Shown piece by piece: positions 868 to 60,696 of a DNA stretch of 64,000 bases; the stretch's first letter is position 1; every line of letters starts with the position of its first letter. The stretch comes from Xanthostigma xanthostigma (lineage: Eukaryota > Arthropoda > Insecta > Raphidioptera > Raphidiidae): assembly GCA_963575645.1 (NCBI GenBank), contig OY754467.1, positions 52,485,108 to 52,549,107 on the forward strand, in the 5' to 3' direction. A model generated the notes under the pieces. The model saw nothing but the letters and a program-made list of their open reading frames with translations, did not search any database and was not told where the DNA came from. The translations under genes and the position numbers were made by a program.

Positions 868-1105
868 TACAAATCTTAGATTAACGTCTGAATAGAAATC
901 TTCAAATAAATAAAATTATCAACCAATTATTTCAGACTGTATATTGACAAAAAATTATAAAATTGTAATTCAATATCTCAATAAATTACGTTTCGGTCCG
1001 GATTTGGATTTTCTTCAGAAATATGTAATCTAAAAAATATAAAAATGAATTAGTATCTACTTATTTTACAATAGAATTAAGTTCCATATCCATCACTATT
1101 ATAGA
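868..1105 (-). mobile_element. Half copy of a Penelope-like foldback element
   Basis: The sequence from the extension (TTAACGTCTGAATAG) through ATTTCAGACTGTATATTGAC to about 1105 matches the left half of the palindrome at 60216-60696 and the arms at 38668-38804. Only one arm is present, so this copy is truncated or never dimerised. It holds a hammerhead-like core on the minus strand at 986-1018. Confidence 0.6.
986..1018 (-). ncRNA. Hammerhead ribozyme-like motif, decayed
   Basis: On the minus strand the order is CTGAAGA, a stem II region (AATCC, loop, GGACC), GAAA, then C-GTA. The conserved core CUGANGA and GAAA are intact, and GTA fits a minimal stem III followed by an NUH cleavage triplet. 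Only three of five stem II pairs can form (the homologue at 60.6 kb has GATCC/GGATC), so activity is doubtful. Confidence 0.4.
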
Positions 1106-1899
1106 AAAGGTTACTTCCGTTACGTTTTGTCTATATCCGTTTAAAATCACTCACTGAAGTTTAACTTCAAAATATACGTTATACAGGCGAAGTTTATTGT
1201 AATTTTGATGTGTTTTCGTGGTATTTTTTTCGCTAAACTAATGTTTGTTTCAAAACTAGTTAAAGCTACATAAATTTGCAAATTATGAAATTATACGACG
1301 ATAATGCAAATTTATTTCAAACACAGAAATGCATTCGTGTTTTGTCGTTTTTTTTTTTGGTTGCAACGAGAAAATAATTGCAAAAAATGTAAAGGAATGT
1401 TTGAATAAATTAAAAACAGTGTATAAAGTAATAAATATTATAATTTTCTGTCATGTTTTTATAATTTTTAAACAAATTGAAATACATATGTTTTGAATAT
1501 TCAGAAAAAAACTCTCGACATTGGAAATCTCTCAAAAGAAAAAATACAATTAATTCTTTTTTTTTTTTGGACACAAAATTTAATTATGTAATAAAACATA
1601 ATGTATTGCTTACTAAGGATGTGGAAATATTCTTCTTTAAGAAATGAGTAAAGGGCTAATCACTCGCTTTTTTGGCAATAATTTCTATAAATCACTTTAT
1701 TATTTATGGCGTTTCCTATAATAAAAAAATACACATTTTTAATGATAGTTCAATAATAGTTGGAACAGTTGGAAACCGCAACTTTATTTTTCGAGTGTGT
1801 GATTGGCGCAAAATTGCCCTTATCAATCGACCTCCTTTGGCGTTTTTAAATTATGACTGAAAATGAAAAATAAGAAAATATTTGTTTGACCAGTGAAAA
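1106..1899. other. AT-rich interval without a recognisable gene
   Basis: About 790 bp of AT-rich DNA with homopolymer runs. A 62-codon frame at 1672-1860 has no motif and no splice context and is probably chance. Confidence 0.5.
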
Positions 1900-2268
1900 T
1901 CTATAGGTATACTTAATATATAAAGCTGAAGAGTTTGTTTGTTTGGTTGTTTGTTTGAACGCGCTAATCTCAAGAACTACTGGTTCGAATTGAAAAATGT
2001 TTTATTTGTTGGACAGTCCATTTATCGAGGAAGGCTATAGGCTATATAATATAACGCTACGACCAATAGGAGCGGAGCATCAATGAACAATGTTGCAAAA
2101 TATAACTCAAAACTTGTCCGTCCGACAAAAACTTTTGAACGGTAACTCCGATCATCATAAAATTTGGACACAACATTCATCTCAGTAAACTAAGATGAAC
2201 GTGTGTACTCACGTCCCTCCTCGTCCATTCGTTTTTTGCACTCGGGTGAAACCGGGCAGGACCGCTAG
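1900..2268 (+). mobile_element. Non-autonomous Helitron, family 1, copy 1
   Basis: Starts TCTATA...AAAGCTGAAGAG with GTTTGTTTG repeats and ends in a GC hairpin (CGGGTGAAACCGGG, 2243-2256) about 8 nt before CTAG (2265-2268). It is followed by T, the normal Helitron insertion context. It shares both ends with the three minus-strand copies at 2.7, 16.4 and 24.3 kb but lacks their internal tRNA-like segment. No Rep/helicase is present. Confidence 0.8.
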
Positions 2269-2698
2269 TATACTATATAAATAATAAAGTAAAAGGAGTA
2301 AAGTAGAAGCTCAGTGTTGGTTCGTGGTTAGAATAATAATATATTAAGGGTTGTCTCGCGTGACCTCTCCAGTGTGAACTTGTGTTGTGTTCTGAGGTGG
2401 GGTGGAGCACCTCGTGTATTATTTTGTGCAGCTGGGATAGAACAACACTACTAGAGAGCTCGCATATAGTTAAAAGGACACAGTTAACACACGAGAGCGC
2501 TTTTAAGACTGCGCCCTCCAAAGCTCGTTTCTGGACGCTTTAACGACCCGAGCTTTCGGTCGCACGCACTGTACGTCCGCAGTTTAATGTGCCTTATGAA
2601 AAGTTATATTGTTGGCTTGCCTCTTCTATTTCTCAGCCGTTTTCTAGTAGCACAGACACCCGTTTGTTACGCAGATAACTGTCGCGTCATATTCTTTA
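2269..2698. other. Single-copy segment between two tail-to-tail Helitrons
   Basis: This 430-bp stretch is more GC-rich than its surroundings and is bounded by the 3' CTAG ends of Helitrons in opposite orientation. A chance 82-codon minus frame (2273-2521) covers part of it. I found no second copy in the window and no recognisable protein. It may be LTR-derived or ordinary host sequence. Confidence 0.45.
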
Positions 2699-3443
2699 CT
2701 AGCGCTCCCGTCTAGTTTCACCCGAGCGCAAAAGAACGAATGAGGAAGGGAAAGACATGAGTACGCACATTCATCTTAGTTTACCGAGATGAATGTTGTG
2801 TCTAAATTTCATGATGATCGGAGTTAACGTTCAAAAGTTTTTGTCGATAAAAAGCAGTATTTATATTTTTAATAGGTATAGATAATAAATTTCTTTTAAA
2901 TCAATAATTACTGGAATTAATAAAATATAATAAATATTTAATTGAAAACACTGTAGGAAAATTATTTTTATATAGGTACCTATTATAGTTGTAACAGTTT
3001 TCAAATGAGCTATTAATTAGATTTATTTAATTTTAATTAGTCGTAAATAAAATTAAAATAAATTTAAATGTAAGAAAGTAATGTAGAAAATAAAAAAAAA
3101 ATAAAATGTATTCACCCAACGTGTGGCTCGAACCCACGACCCTCATGATATTAAGAGTCGCGTGGTCTACCGGGCTTGTAAATGCACGACGTTAATATTA
3201 TAATATTTAGTTATATAGGGCATTTCACCTGATTAGACGCTAATTTTGAGATACATTTTGCAACATTTTTCATTGATGCTCCGCTTCTATTGGTCGTAGC
3301 GTGATATTATATAGCCTATAGCCATCCTCGATAAATGGACTATCCAACAAAAAAATTTTTTTTCAATTCGAACCAGTAGTTCCTGAGATTAGCGTGTTCA
3401 ATCAAACAAACAAGCAAACTCTTCAGCTTTATATATTAGTTGA
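2699..3443 (-). mobile_element. Non-autonomous Helitron, family 1, copy 2
   Basis: Minus-strand copy: its 3' end is CTAG at 2699-2702 with a degraded hairpin beside it, and its 5' end is the CTGAAGAG/TTTGTTTG block near 3380-3443. The central part holds a tRNA-Lys-like relic (3113-3175). The 5' terminal TC is mutated, so the outer boundary is approximate. Confidence 0.75.
3113..3175 (-). pseudogene. tRNA-Lys(CTT)-like relic inside Helitron
   Basis: Read on the minus strand it runs GCCCGG, anticodon loop CTCTTAA, and T-loop GGGTTCGAGCC with CACGTTGGG at the 3' side. The D arm is largely deleted, so it cannot fold as a tRNA. The same segment lies in the Helitron copies at 16.4 and 24.3 kb, so it moved with the element. 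Confidence 0.65.
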
Positions 3444-4405: not shown

Positions 4406-4726
4406 TATAATACGCTCCACGGATCTAAAAGGTTCGAAAGCTAGTCACAAACAGCGTCGCAAAGGCACATTTTAGAGCCGTTGATACTCCCACCACCTCC
4501 CAGCTACCTGCACGGAACGTGCGCTCGTCGGTGATTGGCTGTGATGGCTCGTTGCCTTTGTCACTTGCCGCTTTCCTGCTTTAAAGTACAGTCGAGTACG
4601 CTATTGTCAAGTTGTTATTATAGTTTTGTTGAGTTGCGAGTTTGTAGTTTTTCAACAGACTGTACAAGCGCCAGCCCGCATTCGCATCTAACTTCCGAGC
4701 CTTTTAGATTCGTGGCGCGTATTATA
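4406..4726 (+). mobile_element. TIR MITE family M, copy 1
   Basis: About 320 bp with terminal inverted repeats near 38 bp (TATAATACGCKCCACG...CTAAAAGG at one end, its complement ending CGCGTATTATA at the other). Four more copies lie at 9993, 13511, 29802 and 55350. Termini suggest a TA-type or TATA target, but the boundary between TIR and duplication cannot be fixed from five copies. The internal frame beginning MAVMARCLCH is carried by the repeat. Confidence 0.9.
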
Positions 4727-5573
4727 AATGAACATGTGTGCAGTAGTTTTTTCTCGTGGAAATTTTACATTTGTAAAACTATAGATAATAAGAAAAATTA
4801 TGCCAATCGGTTTCCAGTTGGCAGGTCATTTTCCCCACTTCTGGCGGTGATGTTTTTCGTTATGCTGCCGAATGGAATTACTTCTAGCGCTACTAAAGTA
4901 GTTTCACTTCGAAAATGTCTGTCTGTGACGTGATTTTCACGTCGGATGTCATGCATTGTATTTAGTGCGCGGTTTGACATTCAAACAACTCGACACAAAC
5001 AGGAGTGTTAAACTGTCGGGTAGTTTTGTTCGGCGGAACGGAAACAAGCTGGCAAAAGTGCTTCTAATTAGAAACAACAATGAAAGGACAAGATTGAAAA
5101 AAAATATCTTCTTTTTCTTTCTGGATATTATTCTCTCGTATTCTCTACTCCTGTCAATTCCTTTCATTAGTCTACTTGTCGTTATGGCATGTACACTATT
5201 GATATTTTGGTCGCATGGCGGAACCCAGGGACTTACAATAATTAATTATTGTGGTCGGTTAATAATTGATTAATATTATGTTTTTTTCTTTAACCAAAAA
5301 TCTCTTTTTGCGAACTATAATGAAAAATTGCAAGTAGTTCGTAATATTTTATTATATTATTCTAATATTTTGGGTTGTTGTTCATCTTCAAGCAACTTTT
5401 AAAAAGTGTACGAAATTCTCCAAAGAAATAAATATATATATTTTTTCGTCCAAATAATCGATTTGTTTTATATGCTGTGCTAAAAGCATATACTTTTATT
5501 CTATACTGAGGATAGGAATAAAATCGCAATCGAACCATTACGGTGCAAACATATACTTTTTTTACGCCGTAAG
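4727..5573. other. Interval without a supported gene
   Basis: Contains a frame at 4956-5273 that opens with TTG and ends in a hydrophobic stretch. Composition is ordinary and no splice or promoter signal supports it. No shared repeats noted. Confidence 0.4.
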
Positions 5574-8956: not shown

Positions 8957-9811
8957 TGACTTTATTTCCGAAACGGAAGAAAGTACAAAACACCGGCGGG
9001 TTTATTGAATCTAGCGTGAAGTTTTCTATAAACATGTTGAATTTGAAAACGGTAAAGATAATTTTTTTAAAGGCTTTCTCTTCGAAATGGTAGATTTTTT
9101 AATCAATATAGAACAGCAAATGTCCCGTTTTTTAGTAATAAAGTTATTTACTTATGAAAGTGTAAAATGAAAAGTGCAAACAAAAATATTATTCAGAAAT
9201 TATAGAGTCTTCAATATTCAGCAATTTTAAAACTAATGCTTTCTTATATTATATTAAATATTTTAAAGAAAAATACTTTTAGAGACACAAAAACAAGAAA
9301 CACACGCTTTCTTGTTTTGAAAGATAATGTTCTATTTTTGCTATAGCATATTTTATTTGATCCCGCCAGTTACGGGAAATTTATTTTTCAAGCTAAAAAT
9401 TAAAATAAATATAAAATGAATATTATTGTAAAGGTAATGTTTCATTAGAACACATTAATAACTGGCTCTGGAACAATTTAAATATTATGTAAGCAGAATT
9501 TTTACTAATTTTTGACCCCCCCTCCTATGCTTACATAAACATTGTTATATATATTTTTTTAAATCTGTGCAAATTTCTTTATTGTGTTATTCATGAGCAG
9601 CAGTTTTTAAGTCTAGAAAAATAAGAAATTTATAGACTATAAAATAATTTAATGCACATTTAATATTTATTCAATCCAATTATTGACATCGTATTTAGAT
9701 ATTATATTCTTAACATTAAATTAAAATTAAATTTTGAAAAAAAAATCAAAAAAAGTAAATAAATAATAATATTGATACTTGATTATTGGCTCAATCAATA
9801 GTTGTATGATT
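8957..9811. other. AT-rich interval, nothing recognised
   Basis: About 850 bp with homopolymer tracts and no shared repeat, RNA gene or coding signal that I can support. Confidence 0.5.
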
Positions 9812-9979
9812 AATAATAATAAAAGAAACAATTGGTCTCACTATTTGTTTTAAATAAACACTGTACTTGAAGAGGCTTGAGCCGAGATGGCCGAAACGTT
9901 GTGACGTGAAGTGTTTGTTTTAAATAAATAAATAAATAGATAGTGAGACCAATTGTTGTTTGTTTTATTATTATAAATA
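9812..9979 (+). mobile_element. Palindromic element with degenerate hammerhead-like core
   Basis: Arms beginning AATAAAAGAAACAATTGGTC (left) and mirrored on the right surround CTTGAAGAGGCTTGAGCC...GGCCGAAACGTTGTGAC (9865-9905). GAAAC-GTT fits the hammerhead 3' core. The 5' core is altered to CTTGAAGA and stem II is irregular. I could not fix target duplications because of AT-rich flanks. MITE copy 2 begins 13 bp downstream. Confidence 0.55.
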
Positions 9980-9992
9980 AATATTGTTGACG

Positions 9993-10312
9993 TATGGTAC
10001 GCGCCACGAATCTAAAAGGCTCGGAAGTTAGATTCGAATGCGGGCTTGCGCTTGTACAGTCTGTTGAATAACTACAAACTCGCAACTCAACGAAACTAAC
10101 ATAGCAATAACAACTTGACAATAGCGTACTCGACTGTACTTTAAAGCAGGAAAGTGACAAAGGCAACGAGCGATCACGGACAATCACTGACGAGCGCACG
10201 TTCCGTGCAGGTAGCTGGGAGGTGGTGGGAGTATCAACGGCTCTAAAATGTACCTTTGCGACGCTGTTTGTGACTAACTTCCGATCCTTTTAGATCCGTG
10301 GCGCGTCTTATA
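9993..10312 (-). mobile_element. TIR MITE family M, copy 2
   Basis: Same ends and interior as 4406-4726 in the opposite orientation. The left terminus is altered (TATGGTACGCG). The frame at 9810-10199 runs through this copy and is repeat-borne. Confidence 0.9.
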
Positions 10313-12288: not shown

Positions 12289-12522
12289 TAAAATAAGACA
12301 CCTTGATATTATGGTATGATAAAATTATACGGGATACAAGGCTAAATATAAAAACAATTTTTATTCACTAGAACATCGTCAACGTTTCAGCAGAAATTTT
12401 ACTAGACATTTTTAAGGTCCTGAAGAAGGCATGAATGGAACGTTGACGATTAAATGATGTTCTAGTGAATAAAAATTGTTTTTATATTTAGCCTTATATC
12501 CCGTATAACTTTATCATATACT
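12289..12522 (+). mobile_element. Penelope-like foldback element with 11-bp target repeat
   Basis: Direct repeat ATAATTTAAAA flanks the insert (12278-12288 and 12523-12533). A palindrome with arms of roughly 80 bp runs from about 12311 to 12522. The preceding 22 bp are a one-sided extension. GTCCTGAAGA and GGAACGTTGAC sit in the right arm. Variable-length target repeats plus a one-sided extension fit Penelope-like elements rather than DNA transposons. Confidence 0.7.
12417..12447 (+). ncRNA. Hammerhead ribozyme-like motif, decayed
   Basis: GTC-CTGAAGA...GGAAC-GTT-GAC: the flanking GTC/GAC can pair as stem I and GTT is a permitted NUH triplet. One A of the GAAA core is lost and stem II is poor, so it is probably inactive. 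Confidence 0.35.
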
Positions 12523-13045: not shown

Positions 13046-13510
13046 AGACCGTCTGTATGTCGATTCGTTTAGAAATTGAGGGCGCCTGATATTATTTTTT
13101 AGTTTTGCCAAAAAAGCTTTACACACTCATAAATTCGAAAGTGAAGTTTTCGAGGGAGTTGTTGTTTTTTGGGAATGTCCCGGTATATTATCTAGGCATA
13201 AACACGTGCAGTAGTCCCGGTCTTTCCTACGGGAGCTGCGTAACAAATGGCGCAATGAAGAGGCGACCGGCGAACCGGCGCCAATCTCTGGAACTCCAGT
13301 TCGACGACAAACTTTATATATGTTGGTTATATCGCCCCTGTTCAATAACACGACAAATATAACAGACATCGATAGCCGTGTACAAATAACAGAATCAGAA
13401 TCTCTCTTGTGTCGCGATGACTGTTTGTAACCAACACTGGTTAACCCCAGATGGCAGCACCCTATCTTGGAAGAGGTAGGAAGGGCGTGGCTTAGTCGCG
13501 ATCTGAAAAG
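13046..13510. other. Unclassified GC-richer segment
   Basis: A relatively GC-rich stretch (AGGCGACCGGCGAACCGGCG near 13260) covered by part of a 193-codon minus frame (13127-13708). That frame joins this segment to MITE copy 3, so it is not a natural gene, although the segment itself might be retroelement debris. Confidence 0.3.
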
Positions 13511-13837
13511 TACAATACACGCTACGAATCTAAAAGGCTCGGAAGTTAGATGCGAATGCGGGCTTGCGCTTGTACAGTCTGTTGAAAAACTACAAACTCG
13601 CAACTCAACAAAACTAAAGTAACAATAACAACTTGACAATAGCGTACTCGACTGTACTTTGAAGCAGGAAAGCGACAAGTGACAGAGACAACGAGCGATC
13701 ACGGCCAATCACCGACGAGCGCACGTTTCGTGCAGGTAGTTGGGAAGTGGTGGGAGTCACAACGGCTCTAAAAAGTGCCTTTGCGACGCTGTTTGTGACT
13801 AGCTTCCGAACCTTTTAGATCCGTAGTGCGTATTATA
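13511..13837 (-). mobile_element. TIR MITE family M, copy 3
   Basis: Same family as 4406-4726, inverted; ends TACAATACACGCTACG and GTAGTGCGTATTATA. Slightly longer because of small insertions (e.g. GACAAGTGACAGAG). Confidence 0.9.
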
Positions 13838-21410: not shown

Positions 21411-21700
21411 ATAAATATAGTTTAAAAAAAACTAAAAAACCCGCTTTATATCGAACTAAAAAGAATTTTTTTTTTTTAATAAGCTTAAAACAATAATGAA
21501 TAGAAAATACTAGTATTATTGTGAAAAAAGCGTGGGGCGCTCCATGTATGAAAATGTGGAATAAAGCTCCCCACATTTTTTCACAATAATACTAGTATTT
21601 TTTATTCATTATTGTTTTAAGCTTATTTTAAAAAAAATATTTTTTACTTTTTAGTTCGATATAAAGCGTGTTTTTTAGTTTTTTTTAAACTATAATTTAT
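21411..21700. mobile_element. Long foldback element with GTGGGGCGC core
   Basis: Arms of about 130 bp (left 21411-21541, right 21566-21700) form an almost complete hairpin. Landmarks are TATCGAACTAAAAAG, AATAAGCTTAAAACAATAAT and TGTGAAAAAAGCGTGGGGCG. The element at 27606-27810 shares the GTGGGGCGC core and the TTTTTAGTTCG end. Confidence 0.85.
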
Positions 21701-26565: not shown

Positions 26566-27007
26566 ATATAGGTGACCGGTAATTGCTCGTATTCCTCTCG
26601 GGAGAAGAAACTACGACTATTTTGGAATGACTTAACCTTATCACTTGGGGGTCGGAAATGTGTCATTTTATATGATAATTGCACTTCTGCGAAGAATTTT
26701 TATTTTTTGAATTTATTTATTGTAAGTTTTAACACACAACAAAATCTAACAGTTTTGTCGTTTTTAGCTTTAGGAAGGTTGGCCAAGTGGTAAGCTAATC
26801 AGATCATAGAAAATTCAGGCCAAAGAGTGAGAATATTTTTTTTTAATTTTTAAACTTGCAAATTTCGGATTTTTTTAAAAAGATAACCGAAGTAGATTTT
26901 CTCGAAAATGACGCATTTCTGACTCCCAAGTGATAGAGGTTAAATCATTCGAAATTAGTCAAAGTTTCTCTCCCAAGAGGAATACGAGCAATTATCGGTC
27001 CCCTATA
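26566..27007. mobile_element. TIR/foldback element with 90-bp arms
   Basis: Left arm ATATAGGTGACCGGTAATTG...CACTTGGGGGTCGGAAATG and right arm CATTTCTGACTCCCAAGTG...TATCGGTCCCCTATA are inverted copies. Small ORFs (26481-26793) lie in the arms. No target duplication could be fixed. Confidence 0.8.
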
Positions 27008-38667: not shown

Positions 38668-38804
38668 ACATAAATAAAATTATCGACCATTTTTTGTATA
38701 TTGACAAAAAATTATAATTTTTTGTCAATATACAGTCTGAAAAAAATGGTCGATAATTTTATTTATTTGAAGAGTTCTATCCAGACGTTAATCTAAGATT
38801 TGAA
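38668..38804. mobile_element. Penelope-like foldback element, smallest copy
   Basis: Perfect 10-bp direct repeat TCTTTCTTTT (38658-38667, 38805-38814) flanks a near-perfect palindrome of about 99 bp plus a one-sided 38-bp extension (AGAGTTCTATCCAGACGTTA...). The extension matches, inverted, those at 868 and 60216. This copy is too short to hold the ribozyme core. Confidence 0.8.
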
Positions 38805-41831: not shown

Positions 41832-42084
41832 ATATATTAGACATCGTGTCCATCGAGATAATAATTAACAAGAAAAATCGCAGGATTGTGGACAAAAAGT
41901 TAGATTTATTAATGTACGACGTTTCGTCTATAGATTTAGATTTTTTCAAGTACAATATATTGTACTTGAAAGGACGAAACGTCGTGCAATATATTGTACT
42001 TGGAAAAATCTAAATCTATAGACGAAACGTCGTACATTAATAAATCTAACTTTTTGTCCGCAATCCTGCGATTTTTCTTATTAA
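41832..42084 (+). mobile_element. Penelope-like foldback element with 12-bp target repeat
   Basis: Perfect direct repeat GTATTTAGTAAC (41820-41831 and 42085-42096). After a 33-bp one-sided extension the palindrome runs from 41865 to 42084 with ends ACAAGAAAAATCGCAGGATTG and its complement. GACGAAACGTCGT occurs in the plus orientation at about 41973 and 42021 and inverted in the left arm. The CTGAAGA half of the ribozyme core is degraded (CTTGAAAGG). Confidence 0.85.
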
Positions 42085-44793: not shown

Positions 44794-44980
44794 CTAATAG
44801 TTTCTGCCTTTACTTGATGAAAATCCATTATAAAATAAAATAAATAAAACAATTAAGTTAAAAAAGATTCTCACTTTAATTATCAATATCTGATGAAGCT
44901 GCTGTGACAGCGAAACATATGTTATATTTTGATAATTAAAGTGAAAATCTTTTTTAACTTAATTATTTTATTTATTTTAT
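44794..44980 (+). mobile_element. Penelope-like foldback element carrying a hammerhead core
   Basis: Direct repeat TTTTTATTATAT (44782-44793, 44981-44992) flanks a 41-bp one-sided extension (44794-44834) and a palindrome (44835-44980) whose arms share CAATTAAGTTAAAAAAGATT. The hammerhead-like core lies at its centre, with arms TTAATTATCA/TGATAATTAA able to act as stem I. AT-rich repeats make the duplication less certain here than at 41.9 or 38.7 kb. Confidence 0.75.
44890..44916 (+). ncRNA. Hammerhead ribozyme-like core
   Basis: CTGATGA, A, stem II GCTG...CAGC, GAAAC: the exact CUGAUGA and GAAA core with a paired stem II and a long potential stem I. The stem III side reads ATATGTTATATTTT rather than GTC, so the cleavage triplet is not clear. 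Probably derived from an active ribozyme; present activity unknown. Confidence 0.5.
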
Positions 44981-45263: not shown

Positions 45264-45440
45264 GTTTACACAAAATTTATAAATCATTATAATTTCTATA
45301 ATCATTGAATAAAGATTAATTTAAAATAAAACAAATTAGACATTATGACATTATAATTCCAATAGACCCACTCAGTGATATTGCACGACGGTAATATTTT
45401 GACGGCCAATGATTGGTTCATCCGTCAGAACCGTAATATA

Positions 45441-45677
45441 AAAACGCCATCGCATCGACACGACCTCGTAATTGTTTTATTTTAAAGAACTCCCCCCAAA
45501 CGCCCTCCCTTTTCACTGCGCAAAAAAACGCCATTGCATCGATACGACCCCGAAATTGTTTTTTTAAAGAGCTCCCCCTAAACGCCCTTCTTTTTTCACT
45601 GCGCGAAAAAAACGCTACCGCATCGACACGACCCCGTAATTGTTTTTTAAAGAACTTCCCCCAAATGCCCTCCTCTG
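45441..45677. repeat. 84-bp tandem repeat, about 2.8 copies
   Basis: Units begin at 45441, 45525 and 45609, exactly 84 bp apart, sharing AAAACGCYAYYGCATCGAYACG, CCCCAAACGCCCT and TTTTCACTGCGC. Confidence 0.9.
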
Positions 45678-46203: not shown

Positions 46204-46257
46204 CCGCTGTGCTGTGCAAAACAGATGTTAAAAAATAATATTCTAAGAGTAAAAAAA

Positions 46258-46415
46258 TTGAACCTCTTTCAAAAAAGGGTCACTAAAAAGCGTAAAAAAG
46301 TTTGAGGTTGGCACCAATTTAATATACCTAACTACATAAAACGCGCATGATAGTAATTAAATAGGCACAAAACTTTTTTACGCTTTTTAGTGACTCTTTT
46401 TTGAAGGAGGTTCAA
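46258..46415. mobile_element. Foldback element with 46-bp arms
   Basis: Left TTGAACCTCTTTCAAAAAAG...GCGTAAAAAAGTTT and right AAACTTTTTTACGCTTTTTA...GGAGGTTCAA. Short AT-rich loop region. The phrase GAACCTCCT plus TTTTTGAA is also found in the unrelated repeat at 46480-46680. Confidence 0.85.
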
Positions 46416-46479
46416 TAAAAAAGATTTTTTTAGTTACATTTTGTGCATAAGTAAAAGCAAAGTATTGAAGTCATGTTTG

Positions 46480-47549: not shown

Positions 47550-48000
47550 AACGTAACGCTTGAATATAGTAACGACTTGATGGCATTAGTAAGCTAATAA
47601 TTCGTTTTATTAGAAATTAATTATTTAAAATAAATATAGGGATATACACTATACAGTGGGTACAGGCTAACGCGATAATAGGCTTTGCCTTTTTAAAACT
47701 CGAAATTCTGCATAGGTAATCGTCGTTCTTTTTGTTTGCGCAGAAGAGATACATGCTACAACGGTGTTTTTTATATAATAATGGTATACTTTTCATAACG
47801 GCTTATTATTCTATTTATTTTTTCAAGAAAGTTTTGTGAAAGTTTTATTTCGGAAATATTTTGAAAAAAAATCAACTGTTCTTTTGTTTTGTAGATCTGT
47901 CAGAAATAAACTAGTTAAGCATGGTTTGAGTAATTTTTACATGACGTGGAATATATTATGCAGGTAACCACGGTAACGAATAGCAAATATTATATTAAAT

Positions 48001-48282
48001 GACTGTAAATGTTCATGGGTATTTGGATTGACAAAACATTTATTATTTAAACAATTCTTTAATATCATCGTACGACGTTTCATGACTTTTGTACTTGTAA
48101 AATAATATTTATCTATTGTTTTTTGTATTCTTGTTACAGTACCTGAAGAAGTCTCGAGAGAGACGAAACGTCGTACGATGATATTAAAGAATTGTTTAAA
48201 TAATAACTGTTTTGTCAATCCAAATACCCATGAACATTTACAGTCATTCAATAACATGGATATGAATAGAATAAACCATTAC
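48001..48282 (+). mobile_element. Penelope-like foldback element inserted in R1
   Basis: Seven-base repeat ATTAAAT (47994-48000, 48283-48289) flanks a palindrome (48001 to about 48245) with arms GACTGTAAATGTTCATGGG..., plus a one-sided extension of about 37 bp on the right. The insertion point is confirmed by comparison with the unbroken R1 copies. The right arm contains the best hammerhead-like sequence in the window. Confidence 0.85.
48139..48176 (+). ncRNA. Hammerhead ribozyme-like motif, best preserved
   Basis: Order: GTAC (stem I), CTGAAGA (core), A, GTCTC-GAGA-GAGAC (perfect 5-bp stem II with tetraloop), GAAA (core), CG then UC (two-pair loopless stem III and NUH triplet), GTAC (stem I). 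All catalytic core positions of the hammerhead consensus CUGANGA...GAAA...UH are present. The extra A between core and stem II recurs in the 1.0 and 44.9 kb copies. A minimal stem III is typical of hammerheads in Penelope-like elements, where dimeric folding is thought to help. Activity untested. Confidence 0.65.
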
Positions 48283-48420
48283 ATTAAATACTAGCTATTA
48301 CCCGCGTCACCTCACGCGATATCAGAAATTTTATTTTCTTTATTATATACTTATCAAATGTCAACATTTTGAAGTTGGAATGGTCCCGTCGCCCAATTGG
48401 CTGAATTTTTTGGTATGAAA

Positions 48421-60215: not shown

Positions 60216-60696
60216 CAAATCTTTGATTAACGTCTGAATGGAACTCTTCAAATAAATAAAATGATCGACCAATTTTTTTCAGACTATATATTGACATTAA
60301 AATAATAAAATCATAAATCAATATTTCACTAGATGACGTTTCAATTCAGAAATAATCTATAAAAAATATAAAAATTAATTAGTATATCTACTTGTTTTCT
60401 AATAGAATAAAAATTAATAACAAACAATTTTTTAATGAGTAGTCATGGATATCTATGTATCTAAAAATAGATATCCATGACTACTTACTAAAAAATTGTT
60501 TGTTATGAATTTTTCATTAATATTTCGATAATTCAACTCCATTCTATTAGAAAATAAGTAGATATACTAATTAATTTTTATATTTTTTAGATTATTTCTA
60601 AAGAAGATCCAAATCCGGATCGAAATGTCATCTAGTGAAATATTTCAATGTCAATATACCTATAGTCTGAAAAAAATTGGTCGATAATTTATTTAT
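60216..60696 (+). mobile_element. Largest Penelope-like foldback element, 481 bp
   Basis: 13-bp direct repeat with one mismatch (TTAATGCAGTAGA 60203-60215, TTAATGCAATAGA 60697-60709). A 37-bp extension (60216-60252) is followed by a palindrome with arms of about 220 bp centred near 60460 (ATGGATATCTATGTATCT...). The extension and outer arms match 868-1105 and 38668-38804. Hammerhead-like remnants lie in both arms (60332-60352 minus, 60598-60628 plus). Confidence 0.85.
60598..60628 (+). ncRNA. Hammerhead ribozyme-like motif, core mutated
   Basis: CTAAAGA-A-GATCC...GGATC-GAAA-T-GTC: stem II is perfect (GATCC/GGATC) and the GAAA and GTC positions are kept. The first core half is CTAAAGA instead of CTGAAGA, and C15.2 is T. 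Predicted inactive. Confidence 0.4.

What the first reader, a model, noticed from the sequence alone, without database searches (positions are those of the whole stretch)
48001..48282. Family of palindromic Penelope-like elements carrying hammerhead-like ribozymes
Six foldback elements (12289-12522, 38668-38804, 41832-42084, 44794-44980, 48001-48282, 60216-60696) share a design unlike DNA-transposon MITEs. Each has an inverted repeat, an extension of 22, 38, 33, 41, 37 and 37 bp on one side only, and flanking direct repeats of 11, 10, 12, 12, 7 and 13 bp. Most contain CTGAWGA-stem II-GAAAC-GTH. Variable target repeats, one-sided tails and minimal-stem-III hammerheads are known traits of Penelope-like retroelements. 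What seems new is the short RT-less inverted dimer built around the ribozyme: a possible non-autonomous, ribozyme-processed form.
Basis: partly seen in the sequence, partly recalled or inferred. Interest (0 to 1): 0.88.

Follow-up and report, generated by a model that had tools for sequence, protein, structure and literature searches.

The report
Stunted Penelope-type inserts with ribozymes
Short hairpin-like DNA inserts in this animal-like genome look like the stunted, mirror-image insertion products of a known kind of retrotransposon (Penelope-like elements) that carries a small self-cutting RNA motif; they are most likely by-products of that element's unusual way of inserting rather than a new kind of mobile element.

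Summary
The observation largely holds. All six foldbacks exist, each with an extension on one side and direct repeats at its ends (7-12 nt exact; at 60216 8 exact, 13 with one mismatch). Geometry-matched random placements give P 0.0003-0.05, weakest at the named element 48001-48282. A single-arm copy (870-1108) shares the family of 38668 and 60216; 9766-9973 is a candidate seventh foldback. Six hammerhead cores from five insertions covary in stems I and II. A model built without 48143-48172 finds it (E 1.6e-5) but not 44890. Rfam finds no hammerhead. The exact motif is in 2 of 6 elements. One-sided 22-41 bp tails, variable AT-rich target repeats, inverted arms and minimal hammerheads match published Penelope pseudo-LTR anatomy. 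No RT or endonuclease was found, so autonomous membership is unproven. The novelty claim, a ribozyme-processed palindromic form, is not supported: copies of one family share termini but not centres, one lacks the ribozyme, one is single-armed, and in 48001-48282 RNA the ribozyme's 3' half pairs with the opposite arm. Best reading: severely truncated, both-ends-primed Penelope-type insertions, formed anew each time. Oddity: the partner ribozyme copy lacks stem II in at least two elements.

The parts
48001..48282 (+). e5: head-to-head inverted element; arms 48001-48081 and 48165-48245, tail 48246-48282, target repeat ATTAAAT at 47994-48000 and 48283-48289
   Evidence: 7-nt repeat, P about 0.05
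48137..48184 (+). hammerhead core of e5 (CTGAAGA from 48143; predicted cut after 48172)
   Evidence: found by model R2 built without it, E 1.6e-5
48062..48096 (-). partner copy of the e5 hammerhead on the opposite arm, stem II mostly missing
   Evidence: 21.5 bits, E 0.068; 15.8 bits, E 1.9
12289..12522 (.). e1: inverted element, 22-bp tail on the left, 11-12 bp target repeat; hammerhead core broken
38668..38804 (.). e2: shortest inverted element, tail on the right, 10-bp target repeat, no hammerhead; same family as e6 and e7
41832..42084 (.). e3: inverted element, 33-bp tail on the left, 12-bp target repeat; decayed hammerheads on both arms (41906-41955 minus, 41994-42043 plus) and a weak stem-II-less copy at 41960-41992
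44794..44980 (.). e4: inverted element, 41-bp tail on the left, 12-bp target repeat; one hammerhead (44884-44935 plus) forms the apex, with the arms as its stem I
   Evidence: not recovered by R2 (13.0 bits, E 7.9)
60216..60696 (.). e6: inverted element, 37-bp tail on the left, target repeat 8 exact or 13 with one mismatch; hammerhead on the right arm (60592-60641 plus), stem-II-less partner at 60323-60371 minus
870..1108 (-). e7: single-arm copy of the e2/e6 family with the same tail end and a hammerhead (975-1024 minus); no abutting target repeat found
9766..9973 (.). e8, candidate only: foldback (arms 9811-9850 and 9934-9973, 85% complementary), 45-nt one-sided left stretch, low-complexity 10-nt repeat TAAATAAATA at 9756-9765 and 9974-9983, hammerhead-like string near 9861-9912
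   Evidence: hammerhead weak (14.4 bits, E 2.4)

Best explanation
These are short, RT-less insertion products of Penelope-like retrotransposons. Inferred steps: the Penelope-type RT/GIY-YIG protein, supplied from elsewhere, nicks both strands of an AT-rich site with a 7-13 nt stagger. Each nick primes a cDNA that starts at one of two neighbouring internal start sites of the RNA. The distal start leaves the 22-41 bp tail and the proximal start leaves none. Both cDNAs run towards the RNA's 5' side, usually through the hammerhead, stop early, and are joined head to head. The result is a palindrome with one tail, two pseudo-LTR arms and target repeats. The hammerhead is a passenger from the pseudo-LTR and need not be active for the insertion. 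Shown here: anatomy, target repeats, covarying hammerheads, and shared ends with different centres in one family. Inferred: the protein, both-strand priming and the joining step.
For: Repeats abutting both ends, P 0.0003-0.05 each. e2, e6 and e7 share the tail end, and e2 and e6 the tail-less end, to within about 2 nt, while centres differ. In 4 of 6 elements the arms differ by indels, sometimes with few substitutions (e2: 0 of 41 substitutions but a 7-nt indel; e6: 8 of 182 and seven indels), as expected of separately made error-prone copies. Hammerhead covariation: 86.4% of cells paired, 6 of 11 pairs changed on both sides, 0 of 500 shuffles reach the covariation score. From the literature: the anole Penelope-like protein cuts and extends both strands at AT-rich DNA and starts RT at two internal sites that define the 30-40 bp tail (PMC11167929). 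Inverted pseudo-LTRs with a 31-bp tail and 8-10 bp target repeats are described in rotifers (PMC3846280). Minimal hammerheads in pseudo-LTRs, and mostly dispersed in non-coding DNA, are stated in PMC7761336. Tail-less ends lie 53-82 nt and tail ends 86-119 nt 3' of the predicted cut in e1 and e3-e6 (the e1 core is broken); in PMC11167929 the AC-rich start site is about 85-92 nt 3' of the cut (my subtraction, 111-118 minus 26).
Against: No RT or GIY-YIG domain was found: the 21 stop-to-stop ORFs of 90 aa or more were inspected by eye and nine of them searched in Pfam without a match above cut-off, as were frames beside e7; the rest of the window was not searched at profile level. Arm and tail peptides have no Pfam match. 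Rfam gives no hammerhead. e4 is not recovered by the hold-out model. e5 has only a 7-nt target repeat, and among 13 other inverted repeats four reach 7-10 nt by the same test. e3 and e4 arms show no indels. PMC3846280 prefers self-priming to explain the head-to-head palindromes.
Confidence: 0.72

Rival explanations
1. Penelope-type inserts, but the palindrome forms by self-priming: one cDNA (or antisense template) folds back on a short hairpin and is copied, so the arms are template and copy.
For: e2 and e3 are centred on short natural palindromes, and in e4 hammerhead stem I is the turn of the hairpin. e3 and e4 arms show no indels. PMC3846280 argues for self-priming from palindromes at inverted junctions.
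Against: Copying a single cDNA should end both arms at the same start site, yet 6 of 6 have a tail on one side only (pre-selected). Arms differ by indels in e1, e2, e5 and e6. e1 and e5 are not centred on a perfect palindrome.
Confidence: 0.18
2. A non-autonomous, ribozyme-processed family of palindromic elements that is transcribed, cut by its hammerhead and reinserted as a unit by Penelope-like enzymes.
For: Several RT-less copies lie in 64 kb; e4 could fold with an exposed hammerhead-like apex.
Against: Centres differ within one family, e2 lacks the ribozyme and e7 is single-armed. The 3' half of the e5 ribozyme is paired away in the element RNA. Head-to-head copies cannot form the tandem dimeric hammerhead described for these ribozymes (PMC7761336).
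Confidence: 0.06
3. DNA-transposon foldbacks or MITEs with chance hammerhead-like strings.
For: Inverted repeats and direct flanking repeats; the window holds many other inverted repeats (25 pairs listed), and four of 13 others tested reach direct repeats of 7-10 nt.
Against: Target repeats vary from 7 to 13 nt, tails are one-sided, the hammerhead stems covary, and the hold-out model finds e5.
Confidence: 0.04

Closest known systems
Penelope-like elements with inverted pseudo-LTRs and tail (Pen2a_Av and kin, Adineta vaga; PMC3846280, passages and Discussion)
   Same: Inverted pseudo-LTR arms, optional short tail at one end (31 bp there), target repeats of 8-10 bp, palindromes at the inverted junction; solo pseudo-LTRs without other Penelope sequence also mentioned.
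   Different: The inverted copies described in the passages seen keep part or all of the ORF or a captured gene; here only arms and tail remain (137-481 bp) and no ORF was found.
Poseidon from Anolis carolinensis, PAc (PMC11167929, parts 1 and 2 of 4)
   Same: Two internal RT start sites define the tail; AT-rich targets; both strands cut and extended; hammerhead just 5' of the start sites.
   Different: PAc is a coding element tested in vitro; here only genomic remnants are seen and the enzyme is unknown.
Metazoan non-LTR retrozymes (PMC7229834, passages)
   Same: Small, RT-less, type I hammerhead, proposed to depend on Penelope-like or LINE enzymes.
   Different: Retrozymes are direct tandem repeats, most with canonical hammerheads; these are inverted, single insertions with minimal hammerheads.

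Membership tests
Penelope-like element (autonomous) | ORF with telomerase-like RT and, in the animal type, GIY-YIG endonuclease | tested here: not met
   No RT-like ORF among 21 ORFs of 90 aa or more (by eye); nine of them searched in Pfam and none above cut-off; frames beside e7 negative. The whole window was not searched at profile level.
Penelope-like pseudo-LTR copy | inverted pseudo-LTR arms with a tail of about 30-40 bp on one side | tested here: met
Penelope-like pseudo-LTR copy | variable-length target repeats in AT-rich DNA | tested here: met
   7-13 nt; weak for e5 and e6 taken alone
Penelope-like pseudo-LTR copy | two fixed RT start sites as recurrent ends | tested here: met
   tail end shared by e2, e6, e7 and tail-less end by e2, e6 within about 2 nt; only one family could be tested
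Penelope-like pseudo-LTR copy | pseudo-LTR and tail overlap the start of the ORF | tested here: inconclusive
   some open frames through arm and tail, no Pfam match for five peptides, no reference protein at hand
Hammerhead ribozyme, minimal type I | CUGANGA - stem II - GAAA core with paired stems I and II | tested here: met
   covariation in six rows; hold-out model finds e5, E 1.6e-5, but not e4; Rfam models silent; one extra A before stem II
Hammerhead ribozyme, minimal type I | self-cleavage after GUH | not testable with these tools
   needs a bench test
Metazoan retrozyme | direct tandem repeats with type I hammerheads | tested here: not met
   arms are inverted; none of the 14 tandem-repeat rows lies in e1-e6
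MITE or foldback DNA transposon | symmetric terminal inverted repeats with fixed-length target repeats | tested here: not met
   one-sided tails and 7-13 nt repeats

The most novel reading that the evidence does not exclude
The hammerhead fold itself shapes these insertions. In e4 one arm ends within 0-4 nt of the predicted cleavage site, as if its cDNA ran off a ribozyme-cleaved RNA, or as if stem I served as the self-priming hairpin. In e5 and e6 (less clearly in e1, and in an inner copy of e3) the partner copy of the ribozyme has lost stem II, as if the enzyme skipped the folded stem while copying. That would give the unexplained Penelope hammerhead a role at the cDNA-end or joining step.
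Probability: 0.12. Interest if true: 0.7.

Novelty: new member of a known kind. Interest (0 to 1): 0.42.

Why it matters
PMC7761336 (passages) says that most minimal hammerheads in animal genomes lie dispersed in non-coding DNA and that their role in these retrotransposons is a mystery. These inserts offer a plain origin for at least some of them: severely truncated Penelope-type insertions. Being so short, they expose both start sites, both arms and the junction in one read, so a genome-wide set would let the both-strand-priming model be tested against self-priming by sequence alone.

Tried and rejected
Whole-genome search: no genome is held for the window, so no genome-wide consensus, copy number or autonomous partner could be sought.

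Of the 142 stretches held, 4 had a stem II of 4 or more pairs and none of those had more than one stem I pair. I read them as chance hits; the collections are viral and prokaryotic, so this says nothing about distribution in animals.

Rfam: no hammerhead at gathering score or E up to 10 over the window or on 48120-48190 and 44860-44950. I read this as the curated models not fitting a minimal stem III and the extra A, but it is a negative result.

Coding link: five peptides from arms and tails, frames beside e7 and nine long ORFs gave no Pfam family above its cut-off; two of the nine had sub-threshold matches (E 0.097 and 0.078) to unrelated families.

e8: I first took e8 to have no target repeat. 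On rechecking with the geometry used for the six it has a low-complexity 10-nt repeat with a 45-nt one-sided stretch, so it is listed as a candidate; its hammerhead is weak (R1 14.4 bits, E 2.4; not listed by R2). This mend does not change my odds.

Single-strand folding of short core pieces: the e5 piece folds as stem I plus stem II, but its z-score is only -1.39 (25 of 200 shuffles fold as well). The e6 piece forms stem II but not stem I, and the e1, e3, e7 and e8 pieces do not fold as hammerheads. The e1 piece (12435-12490) began inside its core, so that fold is no fair test.

Papers wanted but not held. One search was a wrong DOI and fetched an unrelated paper. PMC12910113 and PMC6278893 (passages) and PMC6685494 (passages) said nothing on such short inverted copies in the passages seen.

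Full report
Setting. The window is 29-35% GC in 4-kb steps, with no genome held, no tRNA found and no ORF of 90 aa or more with a Pfam match above cut-off among the nine searched of 21. The host looks like an insect, perhaps a moth or butterfly, but that rests on recalled repeat sequences and on no call. I call the six elements e1 (12289-12522), e2 (38668-38804), e3 (41832-42084), e4 (44794-44980), e5 (48001-48282) and e6 (60216-60696).

Observation. All six are inverted repeats. When the two halves are aligned, one half runs on by 22-41 bp beyond the other before the flanking repeat begins. The flanking repeats are at the ends: 12 nt for e1 (sharing one base with the element end), e3 and e4, 10 for e2, 7 for e5, 8 exact (13 with one mismatch) for e6. 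In 4000 random placements with the same freedom, 12 nt was reached with P 0.0003, 10 with 0.0013, 8 with 0.018 and 7 with 0.051. The same test on 13 other inverted-repeat intervals of the window, tail allowed on either side, gave 10 nt for e8, 9 for 21413-21697, 7 for 46257-46416 and 26567-27007, and 6 or fewer for the other nine. e8 (9811-9973) also holds a hammerhead-like string and may be a seventh foldback of the kind, though its repeat is low-complexity. The element the finding is centred on, e5, is the least certain of the six in this respect.

Families. Self-comparison puts e2, e6 and a further copy, e7 (870-1108, minus strand), in one family. Their alignment shows the same tail end in all three and the same tail-less end in e2 and e6, to within about 2 nt. 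The centres differ: e2 turns round 3' of where the hammerhead would be, e6 runs well past the hammerhead on both arms, and e7 has one arm only, with no abutting target repeat. So the outer ends are fixed and the centre is not.

Hammerheads. The exact motif with a stem II of at least 4 pairs occurs twice in the window, in e4 and e5; 60 shuffles gave a mean of 0.18, and 9 of 60 had any. Six cores from e3 (two arms), e4, e5, e6 and e7 align. On stems I, II and III, 86.4% of cells are paired, 6 of 11 pairs change on both sides, and no shuffle of 500 reaches the paired percentage, the cells changed on both sides or the covariation score; 13 of 500 reach the number of pairs changed on both sides, and 405 of 500 the number of further pair types, which is therefore not above chance. 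Sliding the partners by 1-3 columns lowers pairing to 12-50% and the covariation score from 0.648 to at most 0.182. I chose the six rows and the structure, and some rows are related (the two e3 arms; e6 and e7), so this is not a clean probability. As a hold-out, model R2, built from e3 (two arms), e6 and e7 only, finds e5 as its best new hit (39.0 bits, E 1.6e-5) but gives e4 only 13.0 bits, E 7.9. Model R1, built from all six rows, finds these six at E below 2e-7 and then, as its next two hits, the opposite arms of e6 (E 0.035) and e5 (E 0.068); with R2 these two are at E 0.0099 and 1.9. Rfam finds no hammerhead. Several cores are decayed: e3 lacks G8 and e6 has CTAAAGA; PMC6155905 (passages) and PMC11167929 treat G8 as part of the catalytic core. 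Every row has one extra A between the CTGAWGA box and stem II; whether other Penelope-like hammerheads share it I could not check.

Partner copies. In e5 and e6 the partner copy on the other arm keeps the flanks and GAAACGTC but lacks most of stem II. In e1 the tail arm has a similar gap, though its other copy is itself damaged. An inner copy in e3 (41960-41992) is also shortened (R2 18.8 bits, E 0.42; R1 15.2 bits, E 1.6). This could be RT skipping a folded stem, or a later deletion in a palindrome. Indels between arms are not simply age: e2 has 0 of 41 substitutions but a 7-nt indel, and e6 has 8 of 182 substitutions and seven indels, while e3 (4 of 101) and e4 (3 of 55) have none.

Why not a ribozyme-processed dimer. 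Folded whole, e5 RNA is a long hairpin in which the GAAACGUCGUACG half of the ribozyme pairs with the other arm, stem II alone remaining as a side hairpin, although the short piece alone folds as stems I and II (z-score -1.39). Published accounts have these minimal ribozymes possibly act in tandem as dimers (PMC7761336, passages), which head-to-head copies cannot provide. e4 is the exception: its single hammerhead sits at the apex, with the arms as stem I, although the predicted fold there is not a clean hammerhead.

Comparison with what is known. PMC11167929 (main text parts 1 and 2 of 4) reports that a purified anole Penelope-like protein cuts and extends both strands, prefers AT-rich DNA, and starts RT at two internal sites whose interval is the 30-40 bp tail; its hammerhead lies just upstream, showed no cleavage without the protein, and was not needed for insertion in vitro. 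PMC3846280 (passages and Discussion) describes inverted pseudo-LTRs, an optional 31-bp tail, 8-10 bp target repeats, palindromes at the junction, and solo pseudo-LTRs. PMC8969392 (passages) lists inverted pseudo-LTRs and short 3' extensions as Penelope-like peculiarities. PMC7761336 (passages) states that many metazoan genomes hold thousands of minimal hammerheads, most dispersed in non-coding regions. The anatomy here is the same set of traits without the ORF. Distances agree: from the predicted cut to the tail-less end 53-82 nt, to the tail end 86-119 nt (e1 and e3-e6, the e1 core being broken), against about 85-92 nt for the AC-rich start site of the anole element (my subtraction, 111-118 minus 26).

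Is the short RT-less inverted form in print? The ten literature searches listed no paper that names it in the title or in the start of the abstract shown. Key papers, among them the 2014 hammerhead paper and the 2021 Penelope survey, are not held, so I make no claim that it is unpublished. 5' truncation is stated as normal for these elements (PMC8969392), so short copies are expected.

Verdict. A real and tidy set of Penelope-type insertion products. What remains open is why one partner copy loses stem II and why one arm of e4 stops 0-4 nt from the predicted cleavage site. One case of six for the latter is suggestive only.

Noticed in passing
44794-44980: In e4 the tail-bearing arm stops 0-4 nt from the predicted hammerhead cleavage site (after 44923), as for run-off on a cleaved RNA or self-priming at stem I. 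One case of six.
   Followed up: partly
41960-41992: e3 contains a third, stem-II-less hammerhead copy in tandem with the one on its right arm, so its RNA could pair two ACGU stem III halves as a dimeric hammerhead would; the cores are decayed.
   Followed up: partly
9766-9973: Candidate seventh foldback (e8) with a hammerhead-like string (CTTGAAGAGGC...GGCCGAAACGTTG; E 2.4), a 45-nt one-sided stretch and a low-complexity 10-nt repeat.
   Followed up: partly
21413-21697: Nested inverted repeats with a 9-nt direct repeat CAAATTTTT that fits a 30-nt one-sided tail; no hammerhead seen.
   Followed up: no
4535-4933, 9810-10289, 13127-13708: Three long open frames share one repeated sequence; no Pfam match.
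   Followed up: partly
1914-3438: Nested inverted copies of a dispersed repeat (arms 1937-2112 and 3244-3419, 91% complementary; also 2123-2220 and 2749-2846).
   Followed up: no
45440-45673: Tandem array, period 84, 2.8 copies, 46% GC in a stretch of about 31% GC.
   Followed up: no
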